Positions 20,001 to 60,523 of a DNA stretch of 64,000 nucleotides are shown one piece after another (the first letter of the stretch is position 1; every line of letters starts with the position of its first letter). The translations under genes were made by a program, and so were the position numbers. Source of the stretch: Methylococcus mesophilus (lineage in GTDB: Bacteria; Pseudomonadota; Gammaproteobacteria; Methylococcales; Methylococcaceae); contig NZ_CP110921.1 of NCBI RefSeq assembly GCF_026247885.1, positions 2,847,001 through 2,911,000 on the forward strand. The letters run 5' to 3'. The notes beneath the pieces are model-generated. The model did no database searches. It saw only the letters and a program-made list of their open reading frames with translations, and was not told the origin of the DNA.

Positions 20001-21470
20001 ATGAAATTCAATATCTTCGGGAAGTTGTTTCTCGGTGCCTTCCTGAGCACGCTGATCCTCACGGTTACCGTCATGGCTTCGGTCCGCTGGAGTTTTCTGC
20101 GCGGTTTCGAGGAGTATCTGTTCCAGGTCCAGGAAGAACGCCTGGACCGCTTTGCAGCGTTGCTGGCGCAGCAGCACCGGCAGTATGGCGGCTGGGATTT
20201 CCTGAGGGGCAACGAGGGCTATTGGCGTGAACTCTTGCAGCAAGGCGCCGGTTTCGATCCCGAGGACCTCCTGCCGCCGCCGGACGCCGGCTTCGATGCG
20301 GGGCCGGACGCTTTGTCTCCACCGCCGGAGCACCTCCGCCCGCCGCCACCGGAAGGGCTGCTGCGGGAGGGGCACGTCTGGGTACTGGACGCGGATCGCC
20401 AGCAGGTCAGCGGTCCGCCGTTCCCGCTGAGGGACGCGAGCGAGGGAAATCTTCGCCCCATCGTTTGGGGCGGCGCCACCGTTGGATGGCTCGGCTTCAA
20501 GCCGCACCCCCACGCCCTGCCGTTCAGGGACGATCGCCTTCAGGCGGCCTTCATCGAGCAGCAGGCCCGGACCGGCTATGTCATCATGGCCCTTGCCTTG
20601 CTGATTTCCCTGGTGGGATCGCTGATCCTTGCGCGCCAGTTCCTGCTGCCGATCAAGCGCCTGGCCGTAGGCGCGAATGCCCTCAGATCGGGCCGTTATG
20701 AGACGGAGATAACGGTGACGGGCGACGACGAGCTCGGCCGTCTGGCGGCCGATTTCAACTTGCTGGCCCGCACCCTGGCCCACAACGAACAATGCCGCCG
20801 GCAATGGGTCGCCGATACTTCCCACGAACTGCGGACGCCGCTGGCGGTCCTGCGGTCGGAGGTCGAGGCGCTATTGGACGGGGTCCGCGAGCCTACGCCT
20901 GAACGCCTGCGTTCGCTGCACGGGGAGATCATGGCCTTGAGCAAGCTGGTGGACGATCTCTTCGAGCTGTCACTCTATGATCTCGGAAACCTCAAGTACC
21001 GCATGGAGCCGCTGAACCCGGTGGGCATCCTGGTTGAAGTGGTTTCCAGTTTCCGGAGCCGGTTCGAAGCGAAAAATATCGCTTTGAAGCCGTTTAACCA
21101 GCACATTGCCAAGATCACCGTCCTGGGCGATGCGCAAAGGCTGCGTCAGTTGTTCGGGAATCTGCTCGAAAACAGTCTTCGCTATACCGATGCCGGCGGC
21201 GCCTGCGAAATCGCCGTGCGTCAGGCCGAGACCATGGCAATACTGGAGGTTTCGGATTCCGCTCCGACCGTTCCCGAGGACGCCTGTACGCGGTTGTTCG
21301 AACGGTTTTACCGGGTCGATGCATCGCGCAGCCGGAGTCTGGGCGGCGCGGGTTTGGGCCTTGCGATCTGCCGAAACATCGTGGAAGCCCACGGCGGCGG
21401 GATCCGGGCGCAAGGCTCGCATCTCGGCGGGCTCAGCGTGCGCGTGGAACTGCCCTTGCTTCCGTCCTGA
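20001..21470 (+). CDS. Two-component sensor histidine kinase (BaeS-like)
   Basis: 489 residues: TM1 at about 8-28, a periplasmic domain rich in Pro (DLLPPPDAGF, LSPPPEHLRPPPPEG), TM2 at about 192-212, a HAMP domain (LPIKRLAVGANALRSGRYE), the H box DTSHELRTPLAVLRSE with H275, the N box LLENSLRYTDAGG and the GLGLAICRNIVEAHGG ATP lid. The architecture matches BaeS/envelope-stress kinases. It is cotranscribed with the response regulator 17 bp downstream. The stimulus is unknown; the secreted EF-hand gene upstream is a candidate regulon member. Confidence 0.9.
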   Translation: MKFNIFGKLFLGAFLSTLILTVTVMASVRWSFLRGFEEYLFQVQEERLDRFAALLAQQHRQYGGWDFLRGNEGYWRELLQQGAGFDPEDLLPPPDAGFDAGPDALSPPPEHLRPPPPEGLLREGHVWVLDADRQQVSGPPFPLRDASEGNLRPIVWGGATVGWLGFKPHPHALPFRDDRLQAAFIEQQARTGYVIMALALLISLVGSLILARQFLLPIKRLAVGANALRSGRYETEITVTGDDELGRLAADFNLLARTLAHNEQCRRQWVADTSHELRTPLAVLRSEVEALLDGVREPTPERLRSLHGEIMALSKLVDDLFELSLYDLGNLKYRMEPLNPVGILVEVVSSFRSRFEAKNIALKPFNQHIAKITVLGDAQRLRQLFGNLLENSLRYTDAGGACEIAVRQAETMAILEVSDSAPTVPEDACTRLFERFYRVDASRSRSLGGAGLGLAICRNIVEAHGGGIRAQGSHLGGLSVRVELPLLPS

Positions 21471-21487
21471 ACCGAAGGCTTACGCCG

Positions 21488-22168
21488 ATGCCGGATTCAA
21501 AGTCGATATTGCTTGTGGAAGACGAACCCAAGCTCGCGGAAGTACTCAAGGAATACTTGGAGCGCGCGGGCTTTTCGGTCCACTGGCTGGCGGAGGGGAT
21601 GCCGGCGGCGTCCTGGGTAAGGCAGCACGAACCGGATCTGGTTCTGCTGGACCTGATGCTGCCCGGCCGGGACGGCATGGATGTCTGCCGCGATATCCGA
21701 AAGTTTTCCAACGTGCCGGTCTTCATGATCACCGCCAGGGTCGAAGAAATCGACCGTTTGCTGGGTCTGGAACTCGGCGCCGACGACTATATCTGCAAGC
21801 CCTACAGTCCCAGGGAGGTCGTTGCCAGGGTGCGGGCCGTGTTCCGCCGGATCGAATATTGCGGTTCCGGGCGTCCGCCGGAAGCGGAATTCAGGGTGGA
21901 TCACGAGCGTATGACCATCGAGTTCCAGAGCCGCGCGCTGGACTTGACTGGGGTGGAGTTCAGGCTGCTTGCCGCCTTGATGGAGAAACCCGGCAGGATT
22001 TTGTCGCGGGAGCGATTGCTCGGCCGTCTGTACGAAGACAACCGGATCGTCACCGACCGCACGGTGGACAGCCACGTCAAGAACATCCGGAAGAAACTGG
22101 CCGCGGTGCTGCCGGAACGCGAGGTGCTGGTGTCGGTTTACGGGGTGGGGTACAAATTTGAATGGTGA
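21488..22168 (+). CDS. OmpR-family response regulator (BaeR-like)
   Basis: 226 residues with a CheY-like receiver (acidic pair VEDEP, phospho-acceptor Asp55 in LLDLMLPGRDG, K in YICKPYSPRE) and a C-terminal winged helix (ALDLTGVEFRLLAALMEKPG, TVDSHVKNIRKKL). It would be phosphorylated by the adjacent kinase and bind direct repeats in target promoters. Its stop overlaps the frame of the next open reading frame. Confidence 0.92.
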   Translation: MPDSKSILLVEDEPKLAEVLKEYLERAGFSVHWLAEGMPAASWVRQHEPDLVLLDLMLPGRDGMDVCRDIRKFSNVPVFMITARVEEIDRLLGLELGADDYICKPYSPREVVARVRAVFRRIEYCGSGRPPEAEFRVDHERMTIEFQSRALDLTGVEFRLLAALMEKPGRILSRERLLGRLYEDNRIVTDRTVDSHVKNIRKKLAAVLPEREVLVSVYGVGYKFEW

Positions 22169-22206
22169 CTCCCTTGGAATCCAGTCGGGGCACAGAGCCG
22201 CCCGTG

Positions 22207-22743
22207 ATGCCTAGGCATGAGCGGAAAATGGCGCAGCGTCCGGCCTTTGCCTTCCTCGCCACGCTGATCGCGTCAGTCGTTGTGGCTCCGGCCGTGGCGG
22301 CGGCCGGGTTTCCGGATTTTCCCGGCGAACCGCTGTTCCAGGGAGCGCCAGTGAAACCGCGGCTGAGCACACCGAAGGCTCGTCTTTACCGGTCGGCGCT
22401 GCGCCGAGAGAGCGCCCAAGGGCCGAACTTCAATGGCCATTATCGGCTTGCCACCTGGGGCTGCGGCTCAAGTTGTCTCGAGCTGGCCGTGGTCGACCTG
22501 ACCAATGGCAGAGTCTGGTTCGCAGCCACCGAATATTGCGCCGCCGCGCGCAGCGAGGGCCAGGGAAAACCCGTTTGGATCGACGCCCGCATCGACAGCA
22601 GGCTTTTCTACCGGTACGACTGCCAGATGACCAAGGAAACCGCCTGTCCGGACGACGCACCGAACCGCCGCCACGCCTACGTCTGGACACGCGAAGGGGT
22701 CAAATCCCTGGGAGCCGAATGTGTCCCCGAAACAGGCCCGTGA
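22207..22743 (+). CDS. Secreted protein of unknown function
   Basis: About 178 residues with an export signal (AFAFLATLIASVVVAPAVAAA). The mature domain contains RRESAQGPNFNGHYRLATWGCGSSC, a pattern seen in a family of uncharacterised exported proteins, plus an FAATEYCAAA segment. Six cysteines suggest disulfides. The frame opens at 22162, overlapping the response-regulator stop; ATGs at 22207 and 22228 fit a normal signal peptide better. It probably belongs to the regulator operon. Function unknown. Confidence 0.65.
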   Translation: MPRHERKMAQRPAFAFLATLIASVVVAPAVAAAGFPDFPGEPLFQGAPVKPRLSTPKARLYRSALRRESAQGPNFNGHYRLATWGCGSSCLELAVVDLTNGRVWFAATEYCAAARSEGQGKPVWIDARIDSRLFYRYDCQMTKETACPDDAPNRRHAYVWTREGVKSLGAECVPETGP

Positions 22744-22953
22744 AGAAAGCCAGAGCGCGCCATTCCGCAGACAAGGACCGTTGCAAGTGAAGCGGGGCGG
22801 TTGCCCGGAGACCATGGCGGCTGTTCCGCACGACGAACCGGCCGGGCATGGCGGTCGGCTCAACGCTCGGTTGACAAGGCCTGGCGGCGAGGGCATTGTT
22901 CGGCGGAAAATCTTTGACCTTAGGCCCCATTTTGTCAGTTTGTCGGAAGTGGC

Positions 22954-23505
22954 ATGACGACATTACGTATCGCCCTCGCTTTCGCCATCGCCACGGTCGT
23001 CGGTGGCTGTTCCGGCCCCCACCGGGGCCTTTCCGACTGGTTCGGCGGATCTTCGCCCTCGGCCGTGCCCGAAACCGGCCAGACCTATTATTCCGGGGTT
23101 GCAAACCTGGTGGTACATGCCGGCGCCTCCGGCAGCTCGGCAATCGTCGGACGGTTGCCGCTGCACGAAAAAGTTGCCCGCACGCGGACCGAACACGGCT
23201 ATGCCTACATCCTCGCGTCCCGGACCGGGCTTGAGGGATGGGTAGACAACGCAAAGCTCATCTGGCGGCTGCCTGCGCAAGGCGGCGGTCCTGTTCAACA
23301 TCCGCAACCCGCAGAGGAAATGCCCCCGGTCGAACCGCCGAAGCCGGATGACGCGACAGCGGCACGGCCCGCGCAGCCAGCCGTCGAACTTGCAGACCTG
23401 CCGGCCTCACCCGTCCAGCCGTCCGAACCGGCGGCGCCGGCGGTTCCTGCTCCCGAGCCGTCGAGTACGCCGCGTCCGATTCCCAAGGCCTTCGATCCAT
23501 TCTGA
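22954..23505 (+). CDS. SH3-domain lipoprotein with Pro/Ala-rich tail
   Basis: 183 residues. The N-terminal signal has a lipobox (VVGGC, Cys19). Residues 42-105 look like a bacterial SH3 domain (YYSGVANLVVHAGAS, VGRLPLHEKVARTRTEHGYAYI, GLEGWVDNAKLIW). The remaining 75 residues are a low-complexity Pro/Ala/Glu linker, perhaps spanning the periplasm or wall. Such proteins often bind peptidoglycan; no enzymatic domain is present. Confidence 0.7.
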   Translation: MTTLRIALAFAIATVVGGCSGPHRGLSDWFGGSSPSAVPETGQTYYSGVANLVVHAGASGSSAIVGRLPLHEKVARTRTEHGYAYILASRTGLEGWVDNAKLIWRLPAQGGGPVQHPQPAEEMPPVEPPKPDDATAARPAQPAVELADLPASPVQPSEPAAPAVPAPEPSSTPRPIPKAFDPF

Positions 23506-23603
23506 ACGGGCGAACCCGCCTCGTTCCCGAGCTTTGGGGGCCGGGTCCGACGGCGCCCTGACAAAGTTATCGGTACGACCCACCACTTCCGGAAATCATT
23601 CAG

Positions 23604-24797
23604 ATGCCCGCCGCCCATCCACACGCGCTTCTTGTCATCCTGTTCGTTGCAGCCATGGCGCCGCTGTTCAACGAACTGCCCATTCGGTTGCGCCTGCCGC
23701 TGGTCGTGCTGGAGATATTGTTCGGCATCGTCGTCGGGCCGCAGGTCCTTGACCTGATTTCCGTCGAGGGCGCTATCAGGACATTGTCTGCCCTGGGCAT
23801 GTCGTTCCTTTTCTTCCTGGCCGGGATGGAGATCGATTTCGCCTCGCTGCGCGGTCCTCCGCTCAATTTGGGTGCCATCGGATGGCTGTTCTCCATCATG
23901 TTGGCATTGCTGTTGACGTTTTCGCTTCATGCGGCCGGGATCGTTTCCGATCCGCTGTTGGTCGCGGTTGCCCTCAGCACCACGGCAATCGGCACCTTGC
24001 TCCCCATCCTGCGGGATGCCGGCGAACTCGACACCGAATTCGGCCGATTTCTGCTGGGCGCTGGAGCGATCGGAGAGTTCGGGCCGATCATCCTGTTTTC
24101 GCTGATTTTGACCGGGGAGCAGAGCGTCGCTCTGCGCTCCGGCATGCTGGTTTCCTTCGTGCTCATTGCTATCGCCTGCGCCGCGTTGGCGTTGCAACTG
24201 CGTCCGCCGCGAGTTGTCGCGCTGCTCTCGCGCAGCCTGCACAGCACGAGCCAGTTGCCCGTGCGTCTCTCGATGTTCCTATTGGGCGGTTCGGTCGTAC
24301 TCGCCGACAGCTTCGGCCTCGACTTGTTGCTGGGCGCGTTTGCCGCAGGGAGCCTGGTCGGCCTGGTCGCCCGCTCGCCCGAAGCCGAGCCCTTCCGCCA
24401 CAAGCTCGACGCTCTCGGGTTCGGCTTTCTGATTCCCATCTTCTTCGTCACCAGCGGTGCCCAAATGGATGTCGTCGGCCTGTTCTCCAACCCCAATGCC
24501 CTGATGCGGGTGCCGTTGTTTCTCCTGCTCCTTCTGGTCATTCGCGGGCTCCCCGCGTGGCTTTACCGGCGGAGTCTTCCAACCGCCGAGCGATACGCCC
24601 TGGCGTTTTATTCGGCCACTGGTTTGCCTTTGATCGTCGTCATCACGGAGATTGGAAAAGCTACCGGCCGCATGCTTCCCGAAAACGCCACGGCGCTGGT
24701 CGGAGCTGGAATTCTTTCTGTACTGGTTTTTCCGCTTGCGGCCATGACACTGAGGCAGCGAAAGCGGGAGCGGTCTGAAAGTTTGCTGTCGAGCTGA
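23604..24797 (+). CDS. Cation:proton antiporter (CPA2/KefB type)
   Basis: 397 residues with about 11-12 hydrophobic segments and family blocks LGMSFLFFLAGMEIDF, VALSTTAIGTLLPILRDAGELDTEFGR and ADSFGLDLLLGAFAAGSLVGL. It lacks the C-terminal RCK/TrkA-N domain of KefB/KefC, so it is a membrane-only exchanger of Na+ or K+ for H+. The ion cannot be told from sequence. It is the last apparently ancestral gene before the tRNA-Thr-bounded accessory region. Confidence 0.85.
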   Translation: MPAAHPHALLVILFVAAMAPLFNELPIRLRLPLVVLEILFGIVVGPQVLDLISVEGAIRTLSALGMSFLFFLAGMEIDFASLRGPPLNLGAIGWLFSIMLALLLTFSLHAAGIVSDPLLVAVALSTTAIGTLLPILRDAGELDTEFGRFLLGAGAIGEFGPIILFSLILTGEQSVALRSGMLVSFVLIAIACAALALQLRPPRVVALLSRSLHSTSQLPVRLSMFLLGGSVVLADSFGLDLLLGAFAAGSLVGLVARSPEAEPFRHKLDALGFGFLIPIFFVTSGAQMDVVGLFSNPNALMRVPLFLLLLLVIRGLPAWLYRRSLPTAERYALAFYSATGLPLIVVITEIGKATGRMLPENATALVGAGILSVLVFPLAAMTLRQRKRERSESLLSS

Positions 24798-25060
24798 AGG
24801 AAAATCGGCCGGGAAAAACACGGGATCAGGAGTCGGGCGCCTGGAATTTAAACTGAAAGGCGCTCAACTTTGCTCGCGCCTCCCTTTGGGAGAGAGTCAT
24901 GATCGTGAGTGGAGATGGTGCGGAGGGGCGCGGCTTGAGCAGAATTCTCGGGGGGCTATGTCAAGAGCCTGTACCGTCGCCTCATGAAGGCGGTAGCGAA
25001 CACAGATGGGGTCCGGCGAGCCGAAGGCGAGGGGGGGAAGTGAAATCAATCCTTGACCTA
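24798..25060. other. Intergenic DNA before the accessory region
   Basis: About 260 bp with no credible gene, terminator or RNA. It joins the antiporter gene to the first tRNA-Thr-like repeat and is therefore the probable left host flank. Confidence 0.4.
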
Positions 25061-25106
25061 ATGGAGCTGGTGACAGGATTCGAACCCGCGACCGGCTGAT
25101 CACAAA
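25061..25106. repeat. tRNA-Thr 3'-half repeat, copy 1 (putative att site)
   Basis: Forty bases from 25061 are identical to 60447-60486, the 3' half and CCA end of the intact tRNA-Thr, in the same orientation. One mismatch follows, then five more matching bases up to the anticodon region. No 5' half follows, so it is not a gene. This is the signature of a tRNA-targeted integrative element. Confidence 0.85.
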
Positions 25107-26453: not shown

Positions 26454-26717
26454 ATGAAGAAGCGTTTCACCGAAGAACAGATCATTGGCATCCTGAAGGA
26501 AGCCGAAGCCGGCCTAAAAGTAGCGGAGCTGTGCCGCAAGCACGGGCTCAGCGAGGCGACGTACTACAACTGGAAAGCGAAATACGGCGGCCTGACAGTG
26601 TCGGATGCGCAGCGGCTCAAGGCACTGGAGACCGAGAATGCCCGGCTCAAGCGCCTGCTGGCGGAGGCGATGCTGGACAATGCTGCGTTGAAAGAGGTTG
26701 TAGGCCGAAAGTGGTAA
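26454..26717 (+). CDS. IS407-like transposase OrfA (copy 1)
   Basis: 87 residues: KKRFTEEQIIGILKEAEAG and VAELCRKHGLSEATYYNWK form the helix-turn-helix, followed by a leucine-zipper helix (RLKALETENARLKRLLAEAM). It overlaps the orfB frame by a few bases. Confidence 0.93.
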   Translation: MKKRFTEEQIIGILKEAEAGLKVAELCRKHGLSEATYYNWKAKYGGLTVSDAQRLKALETENARLKRLLAEAMLDNAALKEVVGRKW

Positions 26718-27559
26718 GCCCACAAGCCAAGAGGGTGGCGGTCTCCCATCTGATGACAAAGCACCAGATGGGCGTCACGCGGGCTTGTGGGCTGATCGGT
26801 ATTTCTCGGTCGCTGTATCGCTACGAAGCTAAGCGGCCAGTAGACCAGGAGCTCAAGGAACGACTGTGCGAATTGGCAGCGCAGAAGCGGCGCTATGGGT
26901 ATCGCCGGCTGCACGTGCTACTTTGCCGAGAGGGTTGGGAAATCAACCGAAAGCGCACCTATCGCGTGTATCACGAGGCCGGCCTGATGGTCCGCAAACG
27001 AAAGCGGAAGCGCATTGCCGGCGTGGAGCGCCAAATCAAGGTCGCGCCATCGGCGCCTAACGAGAGTTGGTCTATGGACTATGTTTCGGACGGTTTGGCC
27101 GATGGTCGGCGGCTGCGGTGCCTGAATATCGTCGATGACTTCACGAAGCAGTGCTTGGCCATCGAAGTCGATACTTCGCTGCCTGGCAGACGTGTAGTCG
27201 GTGTGCTGCAACGGCTGGCAGAGATCCGCGGATTGCCCAAATCAGTCACCGTCGACAACGGCCCCGAGTTTGCCGGCAAGGCTTTGGATGAATGGGCCGA
27301 TAGCCAAGGACTGTGCTTGAGCTTCATCCAGCCAGGTAAGCCACAGCAGAACGCCTACATCGAAAGCTTCAACGGCAAATTCCGGGATGAATGCCTGAAC
27401 GAGCATTGGTTCGTCTCGATGCGCCATGCTCGCCAAGTCATTGAGGAGTGGCGTCGGGAATACAATGAGCAACGCCCCCACAGTTCGTTGGCTTACCTGA
27501 CGCCAGATCAGTTTGCAGACACATTTTTAACCGCAGACTCTATGTCCGTTTCGGACTAA
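26711..27559 (+). CDS. IS407-like transposase OrfB (copy 1)
   Basis: About 282 residues from a GTG at 26711, although the frame is open upstream to 26531. HTH_21 region (KHQMGVTRACGLIGISRSLYR) then the rve integrase core with the DDE triad: Asp in SWSMDYVSDGL, Asp in VTVDNGPEFAG, Glu in AYIESFNGKFRDECL. Normally produced as an OrfAB fusion by -1 frameshifting. Confidence 0.93.
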   Translation: MVSPQAKRVAVSHLMTKHQMGVTRACGLIGISRSLYRYEAKRPVDQELKERLCELAAQKRRYGYRRLHVLLCREGWEINRKRTYRVYHEAGLMVRKRKRKRIAGVERQIKVAPSAPNESWSMDYVSDGLADGRRLRCLNIVDDFTKQCLAIEVDTSLPGRRVVGVLQRLAEIRGLPKSVTVDNGPEFAGKALDEWADSQGLCLSFIQPGKPQQNAYIESFNGKFRDECLNEHWFVSMRHARQVIEEWRREYNEQRPHSSLAYLTPDQFADTFLTADSMSVSD

Positions 27560-54104: not shown

Positions 54105-55475
<1,371 letters not shown>

Positions 55476-55521
55476 ATGGAGCTGGTGACAGGATTCGAAC
55501 CCGCGACCGGCTGACTACAAA
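55476..55521. repeat. tRNA-Thr 3'-half repeat, copy 2 (putative internal att site)
   Basis: The first 39 bases match 60447-60485 exactly, then one mismatch and six more matches. Same orientation as copy 1 and the intact gene. It would mark the junction between the two tandem elements. Confidence 0.85.
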
Positions 55522-55702
55522 CCAAAGCAGGATTTTCTGATTTCAATAGAAACAATCGCTTGCGGAGCTTGCCCATTTCAATCCGCAGTTGAGTTATCAG
55601 TCAATTGAGCCATATCGTGATTAATTGGCCTAGCCCGGCATGTGGTACCGGTGTGACGACCGCCGGTTTGGAACTTTTGGCGGGTGTCTGCCCACAAGCC
55701 GA
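55522..55702. other. Gap with no gene recognised
   Basis: 180 bp between the second att-like site and the FIST fragment; no gene or RNA recognised. Confidence 0.3.
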
Positions 55703-55870
55703 TCATACGGCTTCGGTGTAAACAGTAAGAACGCCGGTATAGCCATACAGGTGATGGCGGACGATTTCACCGCCGGCGAAGAACCTGACCAGCGGCACAT
55801 CGTTACCCAGCTCGCGGCTGACCAGTTCGAACTCTGCATGCGGCGCGCCGAAATGCGGACCACCCCGGCC
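55703..55870 (-). pseudogene. FIST-domain protein C-terminal fragment
   Basis: The minus strand from the IS edge encodes 55 residues (GRGGPHFGAPHAEFELVSRE, LGNDVPLVRFFAGGEI, LYGYTGVLTVYTEAV). It matches the C-terminus of FIST sensory domains (pattern VPLVGFFAGGEI and LYGYTGVLT). The remainder of the gene, which would have lain to the right, is cut by the IS. Confidence 0.62.
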
Positions 55871-55886
55871 TGACCTGCTCCCCGAT

Positions 55887-56735
55887 TTAGTCCGAAACGG
55901 ACATAGAGTCTGCGGTTAAAAATGTGTCTGCAAACTGATCTGGCGTCAGGTAAGCCAACGAACTGTGGGGGCGTTGCTCATTGTATTCCCGACGCCACTC
56001 CTCAATGACTTGGCGAGCATGGCGCATCGAGACGAACCAATGCTCGTTCAGGCATTCATCCCGGAATTTGCCGTTGAAGCTTTCGATGTAGGCGTTCTGC
56101 TGTGGCTTACCTGGCTGGATGAAGCTCAAGCACAGTCCTTGGCTATCGGCCCATTCATCCAAAGCCTTGCCGGCAAACTCGGGGCCGTTGTCGACGGTGA
56201 CTGATTTGGGCAATCCGCGGATCTCTGCCAGCCGTTGCAGCACACCGACTACACGTCTGCCAGGCAGCGAAGTATCGACTTCGATGGCCAAGCACTGCTT
56301 CGTGAAGTCATCGACGATATTCAGGCACCGCAGCCGCCGACCATCGGCCAAACCGTCCGAAACATAGTCCATAGACCAACTCTCGTTAGGCGCCGATGGC
56401 GCGACCTTGATTTGGCGCTCCACGCCGGCAATGCGCTTCCGCTTTCGTTTGCGGACCATCAGGCCGGCCTCGTGATACACGCGATAGGTGCGCTTTCGGT
56501 TGATTTCCCAACCCTCTCGGCAAAGTAGCACGTGCAGCCGGCGATACCCATAGCGCCGCTTCTGCGCTGCCAATTCGCACAGTCGTTCCTTGAGCTCCTG
56601 GTCTACTGGCCGCTTAGCTTCGTAGCGATACAGCGACCGAGAAATACCGATCAGCCCACAAGCCCGCGTGACGCCCATCTGGTGCTTTGTCATCAGATGG
56701 GAGACCGCCACCCTCTTGGCTTGTGGGCTTACCAC
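55887..56735 (-). CDS. IS407-like transposase OrfB (copy 2)
   Basis: Identical in protein to copy 1 (DDE residues in MDYVSDG, VDNGPEF, IESFNGKF). GTG start at 56735 overlapping orfA. Confidence 0.92.
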   Translation of the reverse strand: MVSPQAKRVAVSHLMTKHQMGVTRACGLIGISRSLYRYEAKRPVDQELKERLCELAAQKRRYGYRRLHVLLCREGWEINRKRTYRVYHEAGLMVRKRKRKRIAGVERQIKVAPSAPNESWSMDYVSDGLADGRRLRCLNIVDDFTKQCLAIEVDTSLPGRRVVGVLQRLAEIRGLPKSVTVDNGPEFAGKALDEWADSQGLCLSFIQPGKPQQNAYIESFNGKFRDECLNEHWFVSMRHARQVIEEWRREYNEQRPHSSLAYLTPDQFADTFLTADSMSVSD

Positions 56736-56992
56736 TTTCGGCCTACAACCTCTTTCAACGCAGCATTGTCCAGCATCGCCTCCGCCAGCAGGCGCTTGAG
56801 CCGGGCATTCTCGGTCTCCAGTGCCTTGAGCCGCTGCGCATCCGACACTGTCAGGCCGCCGTATTTCGCTTTCCAGTTGTAGTACGTCGCCTCGCTGAGC
56901 CCGTGCTTGCGGCACAGCTCCGCTACTTTTAGGCCGGCTTCGGCTTCCTTCAGGATGCCAATGATCTGTTCTTCGGTGAAACGCTTCTTCAT
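56729..56992 (-). CDS. IS407-like transposase OrfA (copy 2)
   Basis: 87 residues identical to copy 1 OrfA: HTH then leucine-zipper helix. Confidence 0.92.
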   Translation of the reverse strand: MKKRFTEEQIIGILKEAEAGLKVAELCRKHGLSEATYYNWKAKYGGLTVSDAQRLKALETENARLKRLLAEAMLDNAALKEVVGRKW

Positions 56993-57052
56993 GCTGCCTC
57001 CTATCGAGGCAGACTCTACATCACGACCGGACTAATCTCGGGGAGCAGGTCA

Positions 57053-57532
57053 AAAGGTGTCGAAAAATTCCTGATTTTTCGCAGTGACCGATCGTTCCGT
57101 TTCGGGCTGGATGGCCGAATCGTTGAGTGGGGTGGAACCTATATTTCCGGATCGACGTTGAAATCACTCGCCGGGGTTGAGCCGATGACCCATGACGTGT
57201 GGCTGGAAGTGCCGCACGGCGAAGATCGGTTGATTGATGATGCCGAGTTATTTGACCTGTCTGCACCTGGGGTAGAGAAATTCATCACAGGTATTAAGAC
57301 GATCACGATCATCGTTAATGGCAGGCCAAGACAGGTTCACAAGGTCGAGCTTTCTTTCCTTGAGGTTGTCCGGTTGGCATTTCCCGATGCCGTAATCAAT
57401 GAAACTACGGCCTATACCGTTACATTCAAGCGAGGACCTGCTGACAGACCTGAAGGCAGCTTGGTTGAGGGGGAATCTGTGCGCCTTAAGAATGGGATGG
57501 TGTTCAATGTCACGGCAACTGATAAATCGTAG
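57053..57532 (+). pseudogene. Multi-ubiquitin-domain protein, 5' truncated by IS
   Basis: Open from the IS edge to TAG 57530-57532, 159 residues of beta-grasp modules. Residues 1-8 (KGVEKFLI) look like the end of one module. Next is a complete module (FRFGLDGRIVEWGG to DLSAPGVEKFITGIK). The last is a typical multi-ubiquitin unit (TIIVNGRPRQVHKVELSFLEV, YTVTFKRGPADRPEGSLVEG, VFNVTATDKS). In the family, similar tandem ubiquitin-like repeats are substrates or tags for the E1-like partner. The real N-terminus is missing, and no start is near the IS edge except ATG 57158. It overlaps the ThiF gene by 26 bp. Confidence 0.82.
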
Positions 57533-58600
57533 TCCTGATCTGAAACGGCTGCGCGACGAGGGTTATGAGGTTGAGCTCCGCTCCAACCATCTGCTGGTTC
57601 ACTCAGTGCCTTATGTGAACGCACGTTGTGAGATAGCAAGAGGAACTCTCGTCTCGGACCTCACCTTGGCTGGAGAGGTCACGACTCGGCCGGGAAACCA
57701 CATCGCATACTTCATTGGGGATCATCCATGCCGTGTCGATGGCGTAGAAATTCCTCAGATCAAGCATGGTAGTTCCGTCACCGCTCTAGCGCCAGACATT
57801 ACAGTCAGTCATTCGTTTTCCAATAAGCCGTCTAGCGGATACCAGGACTACTACGAGAAGATGATCCGCTATATCGAGATTATCGTCGCCCATGCTGTGT
57901 CTATCGATCCGAGTGTGACGGCACGTACGTTCAGGGTCATCGAGTCCTTGGAGGAGGATTCGCCCTTCGTATACCTAGACACCGCCTCAAGTAGGGCAGG
58001 AATCGGCGCACTTTCGGAGCGGCTTGCTGCACCGAAAGTGGCGATCGTAGGGCTTGGTGGCACTGGATCATACGTACTGGACCTGCTCGCGAAGACGCCG
58101 GTGAGGGAAATCCATCTGTTCGATGGCGACTTGTTCCTTCAACACAACGCCTTCCGGTCACCGGGGGCTGCGCCGCTGGACGTTCTTAAGCATCAGCCCA
58201 GCAAAGTCGCGTACTTTAGGGATGTTTATTCAAAGATGCACAGAGGCATCGTTGTGCACGAGGGTTATGTGTCGGAGGCTGATGTGCAAGAACTACAGGG
58301 CTTTGATTTCGTGTTCCTGTGTATCGATAAGGGGAGCGTAAAAAAGCCGATCATTGAAGGCCTGCAGGCAAGCAGTACCCCATTCATTGATGTCGGCATG
58401 GGTATCCATGTCGTGGAAGGCTCGGGTGAGCTTCTGGGTGTGTGTCGTGTTACCACCAGCTCAGAGGCGAAAATGGACCATGTCAGTCGGCGCATTTCGT
58501 TCTCTGAGGAACAATTGGATGATGCCTACGCTCGTAACATCCAGATTGCTGACCTTAACGCTCTCAATGCAGCGTTGGCCGTGATGACCTGCTCCCCGAT

Positions 58601-59449
58601 TTAGTCCGAAACGGACATAGAGTCTGCGGTTAAAAATGTGTCTGCAAACTGATCTGGCGTCAGGTAAGCCAACGAACTGTGGGGGCGTTGCTCATTGTAT
58701 TCTCGACGCCACTCCTCAATGACTTGGCGAGCATGGCACATCGAGACGAACCAATGCTCGTTCAGGCATTCATCCCGGAATTTGCCGTTGAAGCTTTCGA
58801 TGTAGGCGTTCTGCTGTGGCTTACCTGGCTGGATGAAGCTCAAGCACAGTCCTTGGCTATCGGCCCATTCATCCAAAGCCTTGCCGGCAAACTCGGGGCC
58901 GTTGTCGACGGTGACTGATTTGGGCAATCCGCGGATCTCTGCCAGCCGTTGCAGCACACCGACTACACGTCTGCCAGGCAGCGAAGTATCGACTTCGATG
59001 GCCAAGCACTGCTTCGTGAAGTCATCGACGATATTCAGGCACCGCAGCCGCCGACCATCGGCCAAACCGTCCGAAACATAGTCCATAGACCAACTCTCGT
59101 TAGGCGCCGATGGCGCGACCTTGATTTGGCGCTCCACGCCGGCAATGCGCTTCCGCTTTCGTTTGCGGACCATCAGGCCGGCCTCGTGATACACGCGATA
59201 GGTGCGCTTTCGGTTGATTTCCCAACCCTCTCGGCAAAGTAGCACGTGCAGCCGGCGATACCCATAGCGCCGCTTCTGCGCTGCCAATTCGCACAGTCGT
59301 TCCTTGAGCTCCTGGTCTGCTGGCCGCTTAGCTTCGTAGCGATACAGCGACCGAGAAATACCGATCAGCCCACAAGCCCGCGTGACGCCCATCTGGTGCT
59401 TTGTCATCAGATGGGAGACCGCCACCCTCTTGGCTTGTGGGCTTACCAC
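58601..59449 (-). CDS. IS407-like transposase OrfB (copy 3)
   Basis: Same as copy 1 with two amino-acid changes; the DDE residues are kept (MDYVSDG, VDNGPEF, IESFNGKF). Confidence 0.92.
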   Translation of the reverse strand: MVSPQAKRVAVSHLMTKHQMGVTRACGLIGISRSLYRYEAKRPADQELKERLCELAAQKRRYGYRRLHVLLCREGWEINRKRTYRVYHEAGLMVRKRKRKRIAGVERQIKVAPSAPNESWSMDYVSDGLADGRRLRCLNIVDDFTKQCLAIEVDTSLPGRRVVGVLQRLAEIRGLPKSVTVDNGPEFAGKALDEWADSQGLCLSFIQPGKPQQNAYIESFNGKFRDECLNEHWFVSMCHARQVIEEWRREYNEQRPHSSLAYLTPDQFADTFLTADSMSVSD

Positions 59450-59706
59450 TTTCGGCCTACAACCTCTTTCAACGCAGCATTGTCCAGCATCGCCTCCGCC
59501 AGCAGGCGCTTGAGCCGGGCATTCTCGGTCTCCAGTGCCTTGAGCCGCTGCGCATCCGACACTGTCAGGCCGCCGTATTTCGCTTTCCAGTTGTAGTACG
59601 TCGCCTCGCTGAGCCCGTGCTTGCGGCACAGCTCCGCTACTTTTAGGCCGGCTTCGGCTTCCTTCAGGATGCCAATGATCTGTTCTTCGGTGAAACGCTT
59701 CTTCAT
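59443..59706 (-). CDS. IS407-like transposase OrfA (copy 3)
   Basis: 87 residues identical to OrfA of copies 1 and 2. Confidence 0.92.
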   Translation of the reverse strand: MKKRFTEEQIIGILKEAEAGLKVAELCRKHGLSEATYYNWKAKYGGLTVSDAQRLKALETENARLKRLLAEAMLDNAALKEVVGRKW

Positions 59707-59870
59707 GCTGCCTCCTATCGAGGCAGACTCTACATCACGACCGGACTAATCTCGGGGAGCAGGTCAGTGATCAAGTGGAAGAAACTCTGCGGGTTCTATC
59801 AGGACATGGAGCGTGAGCACAACTCGACTTATTCGATCAATGTCAACCAGTTAACGAGCGATGAACTGGT

Positions 59871-60335
59871 ATGAAGAAGAGCGCCTTGTCTCATCAGTTC
59901 GTGGAGTACGTACCAGAAAGGCTTCAGGAAGGTATCCTTTATATCTCGATACCGTATGCCACAGCAGCACACTCGTGCTGCTGTGGGTGCGGCAAAGAGG
60001 TCGCGACCCCATTATCACCAACGGATTGGAGACTAACTTTCGATGGTGAAACAGTCTCTTTGGAGCCATCCATTGGGAATTGGAGCTTTCCCTGTCGTTC
60101 GCACTATTGGATCAAACGAAGCAAAGTGGCATGGGCGGCAGAGTGGTCGCAGCAGGCGGTTGAAGCTGGGCGTGCATGTGATCGTGCCGCTAAGCTCAGG
60201 TATTACGATAGCAAGGATAGTTCCGTCGATGTGGTTTCAGATTCGCAGTTAACGCTGGGTACGCGCCCTACGTCCTCTACGCCAAGGTCAGGAGAAGGCT
60301 TTTTGACCATGTTCAAGCGGTGGCTATTAGGGTGA
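59871..60335 (+). CDS. DUF6527-type Cys/His-rich protein of the ubiquitin-like operon
   Basis: 154 residues: FVEYVPERLQEGILYISIPY, then H34, C36-C37-C38 and C40 in HSCCCGCGKEV, PLSPTDWRLTFDGETVSLEPSIG, and C75/H78 in NWSFPCRSHYWI. The Cys/His spacing suggests a zinc-binding treble-clef-like site. Members of this family accompany multi-ubiquitin and ThiF genes in bacterial operons; the role (E2/E3-like, or zinc adaptor) is not established. ATG overlaps the ThiF stop by 4 bp (ATGA), so the pair was translationally coupled before the IS arrived. It is the last gene before tRNA-Thr. Confidence 0.78.
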   Translation: MKKSALSHQFVEYVPERLQEGILYISIPYATAAHSCCCGCGKEVATPLSPTDWRLTFDGETVSLEPSIGNWSFPCRSHYWIKRSKVAWAAEWSQQAVEAGRACDRAAKLRYYDSKDSSVDVVSDSQLTLGTRPTSSTPRSGEGFLTMFKRWLLG

Positions 60336-60447
60336 GATTGCTGCTAACTTCCGAGAACCAAAACGGCGTGACGACATATATGCTGTCTACACTGAGTCTA
60401 CTCGAAATATTGGCCTCGGCGGAATATTTTATAAGATATTGATTTTA

Positions 60448-60523
60448 TGGAGCTGGTGACAGGATTCGAACCCGCGACCGGCTGATTACAAATCAGCTGC
60501 TCTACCGACTGAGCTACACCAGC
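60448..60523 (-). tRNA. thrU: tRNA-Thr (TGT anticodon), putative integration site
   Basis: Minus-strand 76-nt tRNA: acceptor GCTGGTG/CACCAGC, D arm TAGCTCAG, anticodon loop TTTGTAA, T loop TTCGAAT, discriminator T and encoded CCA (60448-60450). The 3' half is repeated at 25061 and 55476, so this gene is the right-hand boundary of the accessory region and is itself complete. Confidence 0.94.

What the first reader, a model, noticed from the sequence alone, without database searches (positions are those of the whole stretch)
57053..60335. Ubiquitin-like conjugation operon (multi-ubiquitin, E1-like ThiF, DUF6527) in a tRNA-Thr element
Three overlapping genes encode tandem beta-grasp modules, an E1-like adenylyltransferase with an uncharacterised N-terminal domain, and a Cys/His-rich protein. 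Multi-ubiquitin and ThiF operons were predicted by Iyer, Burroughs and Aravind, and related E1/E2-type bacterial systems (Bil) act in phage defence. This version has no visible E2 or JAB protease, so either the 5' part was lost or the DUF6527 protein takes an E2/E3-like role. The N-terminal domain of the ThiF protein is worth a structural check.
Basis: partly seen in the sequence, partly recalled or inferred. Interest (0 to 1): 0.85.

Follow-up and report, generated by a model that had tools for sequence, protein, structure and literature searches.

The report
Broken bacterial ubiquitin-like tagging operon
This is a damaged copy of a widespread bacterial three-gene set that resembles ubiquitin tagging but seems to do without the usual helper enzymes and without a shared reactive cysteine in its activating enzyme, and whose tag protein ends in serine instead of glycine; intact copies could show whether a much simpler tagging chemistry exists.

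Summary
Window 57053-60335 carries a multi-ubiquitin gene, an E1-like gene (DUF6791 + ThiF) and a DUF6527 gene inside a tRNA-Thr island. But it is a wreck: one IS copy has removed the start of the ubiquitin-like gene and what lay upstream, and a second cuts off the last 34 codons of the E1 gene.

All 80 loci fetched, from many phyla, have the same three genes, and no ORF in them matches my Prok-E2_E or JAB profiles; so the missing E2 and protease look native, not lost. DUF6527 also sits in at least 8 sister operons that do have E2 and JAB, so it is unlikely to replace E2; DUF6791 is what differs.

This is the subset of Iyer's 2006 operon type 6e with an unknown domain in place of JAB, a sister of "Bub". 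New, as far as I could search: the tag protein ends in serine in 91 of 92 loci (not forced by gene overlap), while free-standing tags of JAB-type operons end in or near glycine (6 of 6); no E1 cysteine is universal, but a tyrosine aligned with Bub E1 Tyr370 is.

Best reading: a stress-regulated, E2-less, possibly cysteine-free tagging system, dead in this genome.

The parts
57053..57532 (+). Multi-ubiquitin (Ubl) protein gene, 5' truncated; two Multi_ubiq stretches; natural C-terminus ...FNVTATDKS
   Evidence: Pfam Multi_ubiq 5.7e-36, two stretches; covers residues 64-222 of the 222-residue PDB chain 9cd2_A, 145.6 bits
57507..58584 (+). E1-like gene, main piece (DUF6791 + ThiF); ATG 57507 gives a 26-nt overlap with the Ubl gene
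   Evidence: DUF6791 2.6e-58, ThiF 1.1e-12; PRK06153.1-4 534 bits; an in-frame start codon at this exact offset in 80 of 80 fetched relatives, 79 ATG and 1 GTG
59767..59874 (+). E1-like gene, last codons and stop, separated from the rest by IS copy 2
   Evidence: matches positions 357-389 of 392 of PRK06153.1-4, 6.6e-12; holds the residues that are W361 and K362, 75 of 75, in the relatives' alignment
59871..60335 (+). DUF6527 protein gene (conserved C36, C40, C75, H78, probable zinc site)
   Evidence: Pfam DUF6527 4e-26; conservation; predicted strands followed by C-terminal helices, pLDDT 87.6
55871..57052 (-). IS copy 1 (IS3-type transposase genes), abuts the truncated Ubl gene; no target duplication, so a flank was probably lost
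   Evidence: transposase domains; ends TGACCTGC...GCAGGTCA, flanks GGCC / AAAG; one of 23 full-length copies in the genome
58585..59766 (-). IS copy 2 inside the E1 gene, flanked by GTGA at 58581-58584 and 59767-59770
   Evidence: 3 differences from copy 1 over 1182 bases
60448..60523 (-). tRNA-Thr (TGT), island boundary
   Evidence: ARAGORN
55468..55524 (+). copy of the tRNA-Thr 3' half: inner boundary of the 5-kb element with the operon
   Evidence: 95% identical to 60439-60495
25061..25106 (+). further copy of the tRNA-Thr end: outer boundary of the whole 35-kb island
   Evidence: window 20739-25106 runs straight into tRNA-Thr in a same-genus genome, L099

Best explanation
A decayed copy of a mobile ubiquitin-like conjugation operon of the DUF6791 type, sister to the JAB/E2-bearing Bub operons. 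In intact copies I infer: stress relieves repression by a divergently encoded HTH + ImmA/IrrE pair; the Ubl needs no protease because its gene already ends at the reactive residue; the ThiF domain adenylates the C-terminal serine carboxylate; the activated Ubl is passed on by the same E1 protein, without a separate E2 and without an obligatory cysteine, possibly through the conserved tyrosine that aligns with BubCD Tyr370; DUF6791 positions the Ubl tail or the target; the zinc-type DUF6527 protein binds targets or partners (E3-like). Shown: gene content, overlap, conservation, the serine tail, domain families, regulator association, IS damage. Inferred: adenylation, conjugation, targets, defence or stress role. 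In this genome the system is most likely dead: both upstream genes are broken and no other copy was found.
For: Three genes in 80 of 80 relatives, 79 in the plain order and one (L055) only reordered by stop-to-stop ORF ends. GxGGTG glycines, D206, D208, R217, K233 80 of 80; D206, D208, R217, K233 also in six of six divergent plasmid loci (N214 is Thr in four, D274 Ala in one). No JAB or Prok-E2_E ORF in the 80 loci; the same profiles hit 23 and 21 ORFs in the loci they were built from, a check that the search works, duplicates included. C-terminal Ser in 91 of 92 loci, with five Ser codons and 13 different residue pairs in the overlapping E1 frame. Gly last or within two residues of the end in 6 of 6 free-standing JAB/E2-type Ubls. 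Tyr341 80 of 80 and 6 of 6, aligned with the JAB-type Tyr (hhalign E 2.2e-18). M78-type peptidase divergent upstream in 50 of 80 loci (four of four tested named by Pfam). Sparse and mobile: 8 of 398 genomes of the phylum, own included; 130 plasmid records.
Against: I saw no conjugate, activity or phage phenotype for this subtype. One Cys (C75, DUF6791) is present in 75 of 80 close relatives and could be used by those; it is absent in 4 of 6 divergent ones. DUF6527 Cys are conserved, though they look like zinc ligands. The Ser is not absolute: L062 ends in Ala. No E2-like match for DUF6791 reached significance. An E2 or protease of another family, or encoded elsewhere, cannot be excluded: only Prok-E2_E and JAB profiles were tried in the 80 loci, and only Prok-E2_E in the window's genome (absent). 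No phage record carries the E1.
Confidence: 0.6

Rival explanations
1. DUF6791 is a diverged E2/RWD-like domain, so the protein is an E2-E1 fusion and chemistry follows the E1-E2 route with the E2 fused in front, as in CBASS Cap2 (Cap2 layout recalled).
For: Predicted order: helices, strands 20-25, 28-37, 43-51, 66-70, a long loop with short strands, long helix 115-133. By eye its HSFSNKP...GY.DYYEKM resembles the WSRHN..WRPG.DG motif before the last helix of Prok-E2_E. hhalign pairs the N-terminal 28 columns in that register, but only at E 0.056, probability 1%. Prok-E2_E is missing where DUF6791 is present.
Against: Not significant: local hhalign 0.29 and 0.056, global 0.44. No Pfam E2 family among the 25 families listed for 75 members. 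The best-placed Cys is not universal. The N-terminal domain was not fold-searched on its own.
Confidence: 0.35
2. Sulfur-carrier or small-molecule pathway: the ThiF domain activates the Ubl as ThiF/MoeB activate ThiS/MoaD, or the C-terminal residue is chemically modified as by MccB; no protein conjugation.
For: MoeB, ThiF, TcdA and MccB are among the structural or profile neighbours. No Prok-E2_E or JAB. MccB acts on a C-terminal non-Gly residue (recalled).
Against: ThiS/MoaD-type carriers have a highly conserved C-terminal Gly (PMC1779556 section 6). By eye, no metabolic gene stood out among the largest neighbour-ORF clusters. Nearest E1 is BubCD. ImmA/HTH control fits stress or immunity.
Confidence: 0.15
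3. The window copy is still functional: the split E1 works, or its truncated product suffices.
For: The Ubl and DUF6527 reading frames after the breaks have no stops. The IS copies are nearly identical (3 of 1182 differences), so damage may be recent.
Against: E1 loses its last 34 codons, including residues that are W361 and K362, 75 of 75, in relatives. The Ubl gene lacks about 63 residues against 9cd2 and its upstream region. No other copy in the genome.
Confidence: 0.07

Closest known systems
Operon type 6e of Iyer, Burroughs and Aravind 2006 (PMC1779556, sections 6, 14 and 16 read)
   Same: One to three beta-grasp repeats, an E1-like protein, a small protein with a Cys/His metal signature; [quoted passage not shown] That description fits this operon.
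   Different: Of its remaining new Ubl families, which I take to include this one, the paper says they lack a conserved C-terminal Gly or any other highly conserved C-terminal residue; here Ser is last in 91 of 92. The sections read do not say that the subset lacks E2, and do not mention the fixed gene overlap.
Bub (bacterial ubiquitination-like) operons; Citrobacter BubCD structures 9ea4, 9ea5, 9ea8, 9eae, 9eav
   Same: Best structural neighbour of the E1 (E 4.6e-13); shared ThiF core; aligned Tyr; DUF6527-type gene in Bub-like loci; CapH/CapP (HTH + peptidase) and CapW (WYL) regulators reported for Bub (PMC13373217, passages read), with HTH + M78 and one WYL found here.
   Different: Bub-like loci have JAB fused to E1 and a Prok-E2_E protein or domain; here neither, with DUF6791 instead; Ser tail instead of Gly tail. 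The primary Bub papers (PMC12885553, PMC12145246) are not held and were not read.
PDB 9cd2, 'ZDHYS365 multi-ubiquitin domain protein'
   Same: Full-length relative of this very Ubl: 145.6 bits over all 159 residues, ending VTQTDKS.
   Different: Intact, 222 residues. Sequence searches found no DUF6791- or DUF6527-type chain in the PDB.
Bil (BilABCD) and CBASS type II (Cap2)
   Same: E1-like activation of a C-terminus in defence operons; BilA (8u38) shares one Ubl repeat (58.4 bits).
   Different: No Prok-E2_E or JAB here; one ThiF domain, where BilD has two adenylation domains plus a Cys domain (PMC11354881, passages read). CD-NTase was not searched for.

Membership tests
Iyer 2006 operon type 6e, non-JAB subset | protein with 1-3 beta-grasp repeats | tested here: met
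   Multi_ubiq, two stretches; 9cd2
Iyer 2006 operon type 6e, non-JAB subset | E1-like protein with an uncharacterised N-terminal domain in place of JAB | tested here: met
   DUF6791 + ThiF
Iyer 2006 operon type 6e, non-JAB subset | small protein with paired Cys ... Cys/His signature | tested here: inconclusive
   C36-x3-C40 ... C75-x2-H78. The paper prints C-x(3)-C-x(35-38)-H-x(2)-C, last pair in the other order; that its example sll6052 is DUF6527 was not verified
Bub as typified by Citrobacter BubCD | E1 fused to an N-terminal JAB (BubCD) | tested here: not met
   DUF6791 instead; JAB profile hits 0 ORFs in 80 loci
Bub as typified by Citrobacter BubCD | E2-like BubB partner | tested here: not met
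   no Prok-E2_E in 80 loci nor in the window's genome. That BubB is Prok-E2_E is inferred; a Prok-E2_E query found no PDB chain
Bub as typified by Citrobacter BubCD | homologous E1 adenylation domain | tested here: met
   profile E 4.1e-10; Foldseek 4.6e-13; hhalign 2.2e-18 to JAB-type E1s
Bil | BilA/B/C/D with E2 and JAB | tested here: inconclusive
   no JAB match in 80 loci, so the JAB part is not met; the Bil-type E2 family itself was not searched
Housekeeping ThiF/MoeB | score above the curated ThiF or MoeB cut-offs | tested here: not met
   29.3 against 275 bits (ThiF), 12.9 against 376 bits (MoeB)
Known anti-phage system | specific match to a PADLOC model for the three proteins | tested here: not met
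   only weak E1-E2 hits over the ThiF core, best 32 bits; none for Ubl or DUF6527
Ubiquitin-like conjugation system | covalent Ubl-target products | not testable with these tools
   needs biochemistry

The most novel reading that the evidence does not exclude
A minimal ubiquitin-like conjugation system in which one DUF6791-ThiF enzyme both activates and transfers the tag without any E2, processing protease or catalytic cysteine, using a Ubl that ends in serine. Boldest form (speculation): the near-invariant Ser side chain and the conserved Tyr take part in an ester-type transfer, so the chemistry is a third kind beside the Gly-thioester relay of ubiquitin and the Gly-thiocarboxylate of ThiS/MoaD.
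Probability: 0.4. Interest if true: 0.82.

Novelty: new variant of a known kind. Interest (0 to 1): 0.55.

Why it matters
Bil, the best described bacterial relative of ubiquitination, keeps recognisable E1, E2 and protease and a Gly-tailed tag. A widespread three-gene version that appears to lack the last three would show how little machinery tagging needs, and where the route to ubiquitin could have started. It also makes a prediction of 2006 testable: what the domain in place of JAB does. The serine tail gives a one-residue experiment. The window copy itself matters little: it is a relic that shows the operon moves with islands and can be discarded.

Tried and rejected
E2/JAB lost with the 5' end: judged unlikely from 80 relatives. 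DUF6527 as E2 stand-in: judged unlikely, because it coexists with Prok-E2_E and JAB in at least 8 of 15 distinct loci. C75 of DUF6791 as the catalytic Cys: weakened (Ser in L036, L058, L074, His in L038, Tyr in L049; L, H, F, H in four of six divergent loci). Ser tail as a by-product of the gene overlap: rejected. DUF6791 = E2 fold by hhalign: not significant. DUF6527 against the PDB by profile (none) and fold (177 matches with E <= 10, 0 with E <= 0.001). PADLOC: nothing specific. Literature: DUF6527 and DUF6791 each in 0 papers of the held library; further term searches; the primary Bub papers are not held, so I cannot exclude that they discuss this subtype. 9cd2 shows that someone has worked on its Ubl.

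Limits: the 80 loci are the best 80 of 198 candidates, many of them MAG contigs, and hold near-duplicates (for example L042/L043/L045, L012/L013/L046, L056/L059, L057/L060). L166 and L172 share one Ubl tail as printed. For the 75-row alignments exact duplicates were dropped by script (78 left each); I then also left out L045, L046 and L059, and for DUF6527 also L014, whose ORF start was misjudged (43 residues), adding the window protein. One search took 92 loci: the 80, six plasmid loci, and six of the seven genome loci L160-L166 (L166 left out). JAB-type tails were read by eye in 13 distinct loci that have both JAB and Prok-E2_E: six free-standing Ubls (L112, L114, L115, L155, L118, L119) and seven fused to the E2 domain (L110, L111, L116, L117, L152, L153, L154), the latter with Gly in the linker, four as TTEG or TTAG, which is weaker evidence. 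L122 and L156 had no readable Ubl; L121 (JAB, no Prok-E2_E hit) ends GGASS. L112 and L114 come from one genus. The upstream M78 count has no measured background.
Full report
What is in the window. Three genes on the + strand between 57053 and 60335: a multi-ubiquitin protein (two Multi_ubiq stretches, E 5.7e-36), an E1-like protein made of DUF6791 (2.6e-58) and ThiF (1.1e-12), and a DUF6527 protein (4e-26). The E1 piece scores 534 bits with NCBIfam PRK06153.1-4 and far under the cut-offs of ThiF and MoeB. The Ubl piece aligns along its whole length with residues 64-222 of PDB chain 9cd2_A, a 222-residue 'multi-ubiquitin domain protein'.

It is broken. Two nearly identical IS copies (1182 bases, 3 differences; 23 full-length copies in this 4.34-Mb genome) flank and split it. 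Copy 2 carries GTGA on both sides and sits in the E1 gene, so the protein made from the main piece ends early and lacks the residues that are W361 and K362 in relatives, 75 of 75. Copy 1 has unlike flanks (GGCC / AAAG), so DNA next to it was probably lost: about 63 Ubl residues compared with 9cd2, and whatever lay upstream. Left of it I found only a minus-strand scrap with a weak FIST_C match under the Pfam cut-off (E 0.0038, 17.8 against 28.5 bits). No second copy of Multi_ubiq or DUF6791 was found in the genome. I searched the E1 pieces apart and joined nothing.

The island. tRNA-Thr (60448-60523) has its 3' half repeated at 55468-55524 and at 25061-25106. In one same-genus genome (G002, locus L099) window 20739-25106 runs straight into tRNA-Thr, with no island; three other same-genus stretches of about 19 kb (L098, L100, L101) share only the tRNA and its right side with the window. 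The 35-kb stretch is therefore best read as two adjoining insertions, 30.4 kb and 5.0 kb. DUF6791 is found in 1 of 61 genomes searched around this one, the window's own.

Intact relatives. One scan with the E1 piece gave 198 candidate loci, of which the best 80 were kept; record titles name Pseudomonadota, Acidobacteria, Nitrospira, Bacteroidetes, cyanobacteria, Actinobacteria, Chloroflexi, Paenibacillus and a Nitrosopumilus MAG, among others. All 80 have Ubl, E1 and DUF6527 on one strand; in one (L014) DUF6527 lies 1.3 kb further on. An in-frame start codon for E1 (79 ATG, 1 GTG) lies at the same distance inside the end of the Ubl gene in 80 of 80, a 26-base overlap. Six more divergent plasmid loci (32-40% E1 identity) keep the three genes, though in one (L170) DUF6527 is unannotated and was read from the DNA; four of the six lack a start codon at that exact point and are annotated with a longer overlap.

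No Prok-E2_E, no JAB. Profiles built from JAB-type operons (Prok-E2_E domains and JAB regions) hit 0 ORFs in the 80 loci; they hit 21 and 23 ORFs in the loci they were built from, duplicates included, which only shows that the search works. Other E2 families were not searched in the 80 loci, but outside the three genes no + strand ORF cluster recurs in more than 17 of them, and the largest of those overlap the three genes in other frames (positions; reading mine). Prok-E2_E is absent from the window's genome. JAB-type operons occur in genomes of the same order (L110, L111, L112, L114): all four have a Prok-E2_E domain or gene, and in the two E1s scanned (L110, L112) ThiF follows a Prok-JAB domain, with Pfam DUF6527 in the same two loci. 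Of 15 distinct loci with both JAB and Prok-E2_E, 8 show a DUF6527-type gene in the stretch at hand; the remaining stretches are mostly too short to tell. Thus DUF6527 is common to both types, and the swap is JAB + E2 for DUF6791.

Tail chemistry. In the DUF6791 type the Ubl ends F-[ND]-V-x-x-[TS]-x-[KRQE]-S: Ser is last in 91 of 92 loci, Thr or Ser at -4 in 91 of 92. The last codon is TCG 44, TCA 26, TCT 17, TCC 3, AGC 1, and once GCG (Ala, L062), while the overlapping E1 codons of the Ser loci encode 13 different residue pairs. So the Ser is kept for the Ubl's sake and not for E1's. In JAB-type loci, six of six free-standing Ubls end in or within two residues of Gly (ATFG|ML twice, ATFG|A, ATFG|L, QQG, TEG), and seven of seven Ubls fused to the E2 domain have a Gly in the linker, four as TTEG or TTAG (by eye, and a linker Gly is weak evidence). 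A protease would be needed to expose most of these and none is needed for the Ser type. Iyer et al. wrote that their remaining new Ubl families, which I take to include this one, lack a highly conserved C-terminal residue (PMC1779556, section 6); with today's sequences that no longer holds for this subset.

Enzyme. The adenylation residues are invariant in the 80. No Cys is universal: only two columns hold Cys in 30% or more of 81 sequences, C75 of DUF6791 (75 of 80 relatives) and C272 of ThiF (65 of 81, window included), and both are replaced in most of the six divergent loci (C75 in 4, C272 in 5). Tyr341 (window numbering; Tyr340 in L005) is 80 of 80 and 6 of 6 and aligns with a Tyr of JAB-type E1s (hhalign probability 99, E 2.2e-18). 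That Tyr is the BubCD residue depositors changed to Phe in entry 9eav (title), if the chain carries a two-residue tag, which fits D104 of the JAB motif (counted on the alignment; inference). The predicted structure of the intact L005 E1 (pLDDT 93.2) has BubCD chains as its eight best PDB neighbours.

DUF6791. Predicted order in L005: helices 3-8 and 10-17, strands 20-25, 28-37, 43-51, 66-70, a long loop with short strands 86-88 and 102-105, helix 115-133. This recalls an E2/RWD fold, and motifs near the last helix look alike by eye, but profile comparison gives E 0.29 and 0.056, probability 1% at best. I keep it as a hypothesis. H65 and S105 are invariant, 80 of 80 and 6 of 6.

DUF6527. C36, C40, C75 and H78 are each 79 of 80 in the first alignment, which includes the misjudged L014 start, and invariant in the 75 rows without it. 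In the two Pfam-confirmed DUF6527 proteins of JAB-type loci C-x3-C and C-x2-H recur (L110, L112, sequences). The model (pLDDT 87.6) has no PDB neighbour with E <= 0.001.

Regulation and mobility. A gene of three M78-like (HExxH) clusters lies divergently upstream in 50 of 80 loci, 43 of the 68 with more than 3 kb of upstream sequence. Pfam named M78 in four of four tested, with an HTH gene beside it in the two loci where both were tested (L005, L011); L015 has a WYL regulator instead. Four of six plasmid loci are annotated ImmA/IrrE + HTH. No background rate was measured. PMC13373217 (passages read) reports that 219 of 544 Bub operons are associated with CapW (WYL) or CapH+CapP (HTH + peptidase), which act on DNA damage, and that Bub has not been shown to protect against phage. 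The E1 has matches in 130 plasmid records, 109 covering at least 80%, none in phages, and DUF6791 in 8 of 398 genomes of the phylum, own included.

Verdict. The window copy is a relic. The kind is known as a prediction since 2006 and is a sister of Bub; what stands out is the E2-less, JAB-less, Ser-tailed, probably Cys-free design, which the library I could search does not describe under the terms used but which unread Bub papers might.

Noticed in passing
window 25061-60448: 35-kb island at tRNA-Thr made of two adjoining insertions (30.4 + 5.0 kb). No phage-type integrase was seen among the 20 proteins of this stretch scanned with Pfam, which are not all its ORFs; transposases are at 26531-27556 and 54225-55166.
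   Followed up: partly
window 55871-57052, 58585-59766, 26531-27559: One IS3-type element with 23 full-length, nearly identical copies in a 4.34-Mb genome: recent IS expansion.
   Followed up: partly
window 55706-55870: Minus-strand scrap with a sub-threshold FIST_C match next to IS copy 1: perhaps another gene cut by the same deletion.
   Followed up: partly
L110 7061-7285, L007 7472-7705, L069 6593-7003: Small genes recur near these operons: a basic protein (MAKN..GDG.R.G.V.DR.Q..NP.T..W.KR) in both JAB-type and DUF6791-type loci, and DUF2188 in the latter. They may be unrecognised accessory parts.
   Followed up: no
L112 7614-9200, L114 7418-8971: A protein between the JAB-E1 and DUF6527 genes in two JAB-type operons of one genus; in L112 it has weak TCAD9, APH and kinase matches.
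   Followed up: no
L042 / L043: Two genomes filed as different organisms (Pontibacter, Amaricoccus) carry contigs of the same length (92,608 bases) with the operon at the same place: likely cross-contamination in public assemblies.
   Followed up: no
L100 (G005) near 2495-2541: A second tRNA-Thr end copy about 1.7 kb from the tRNA in another same-genus genome: the site looks like a repeated integration target.
   Followed up: no
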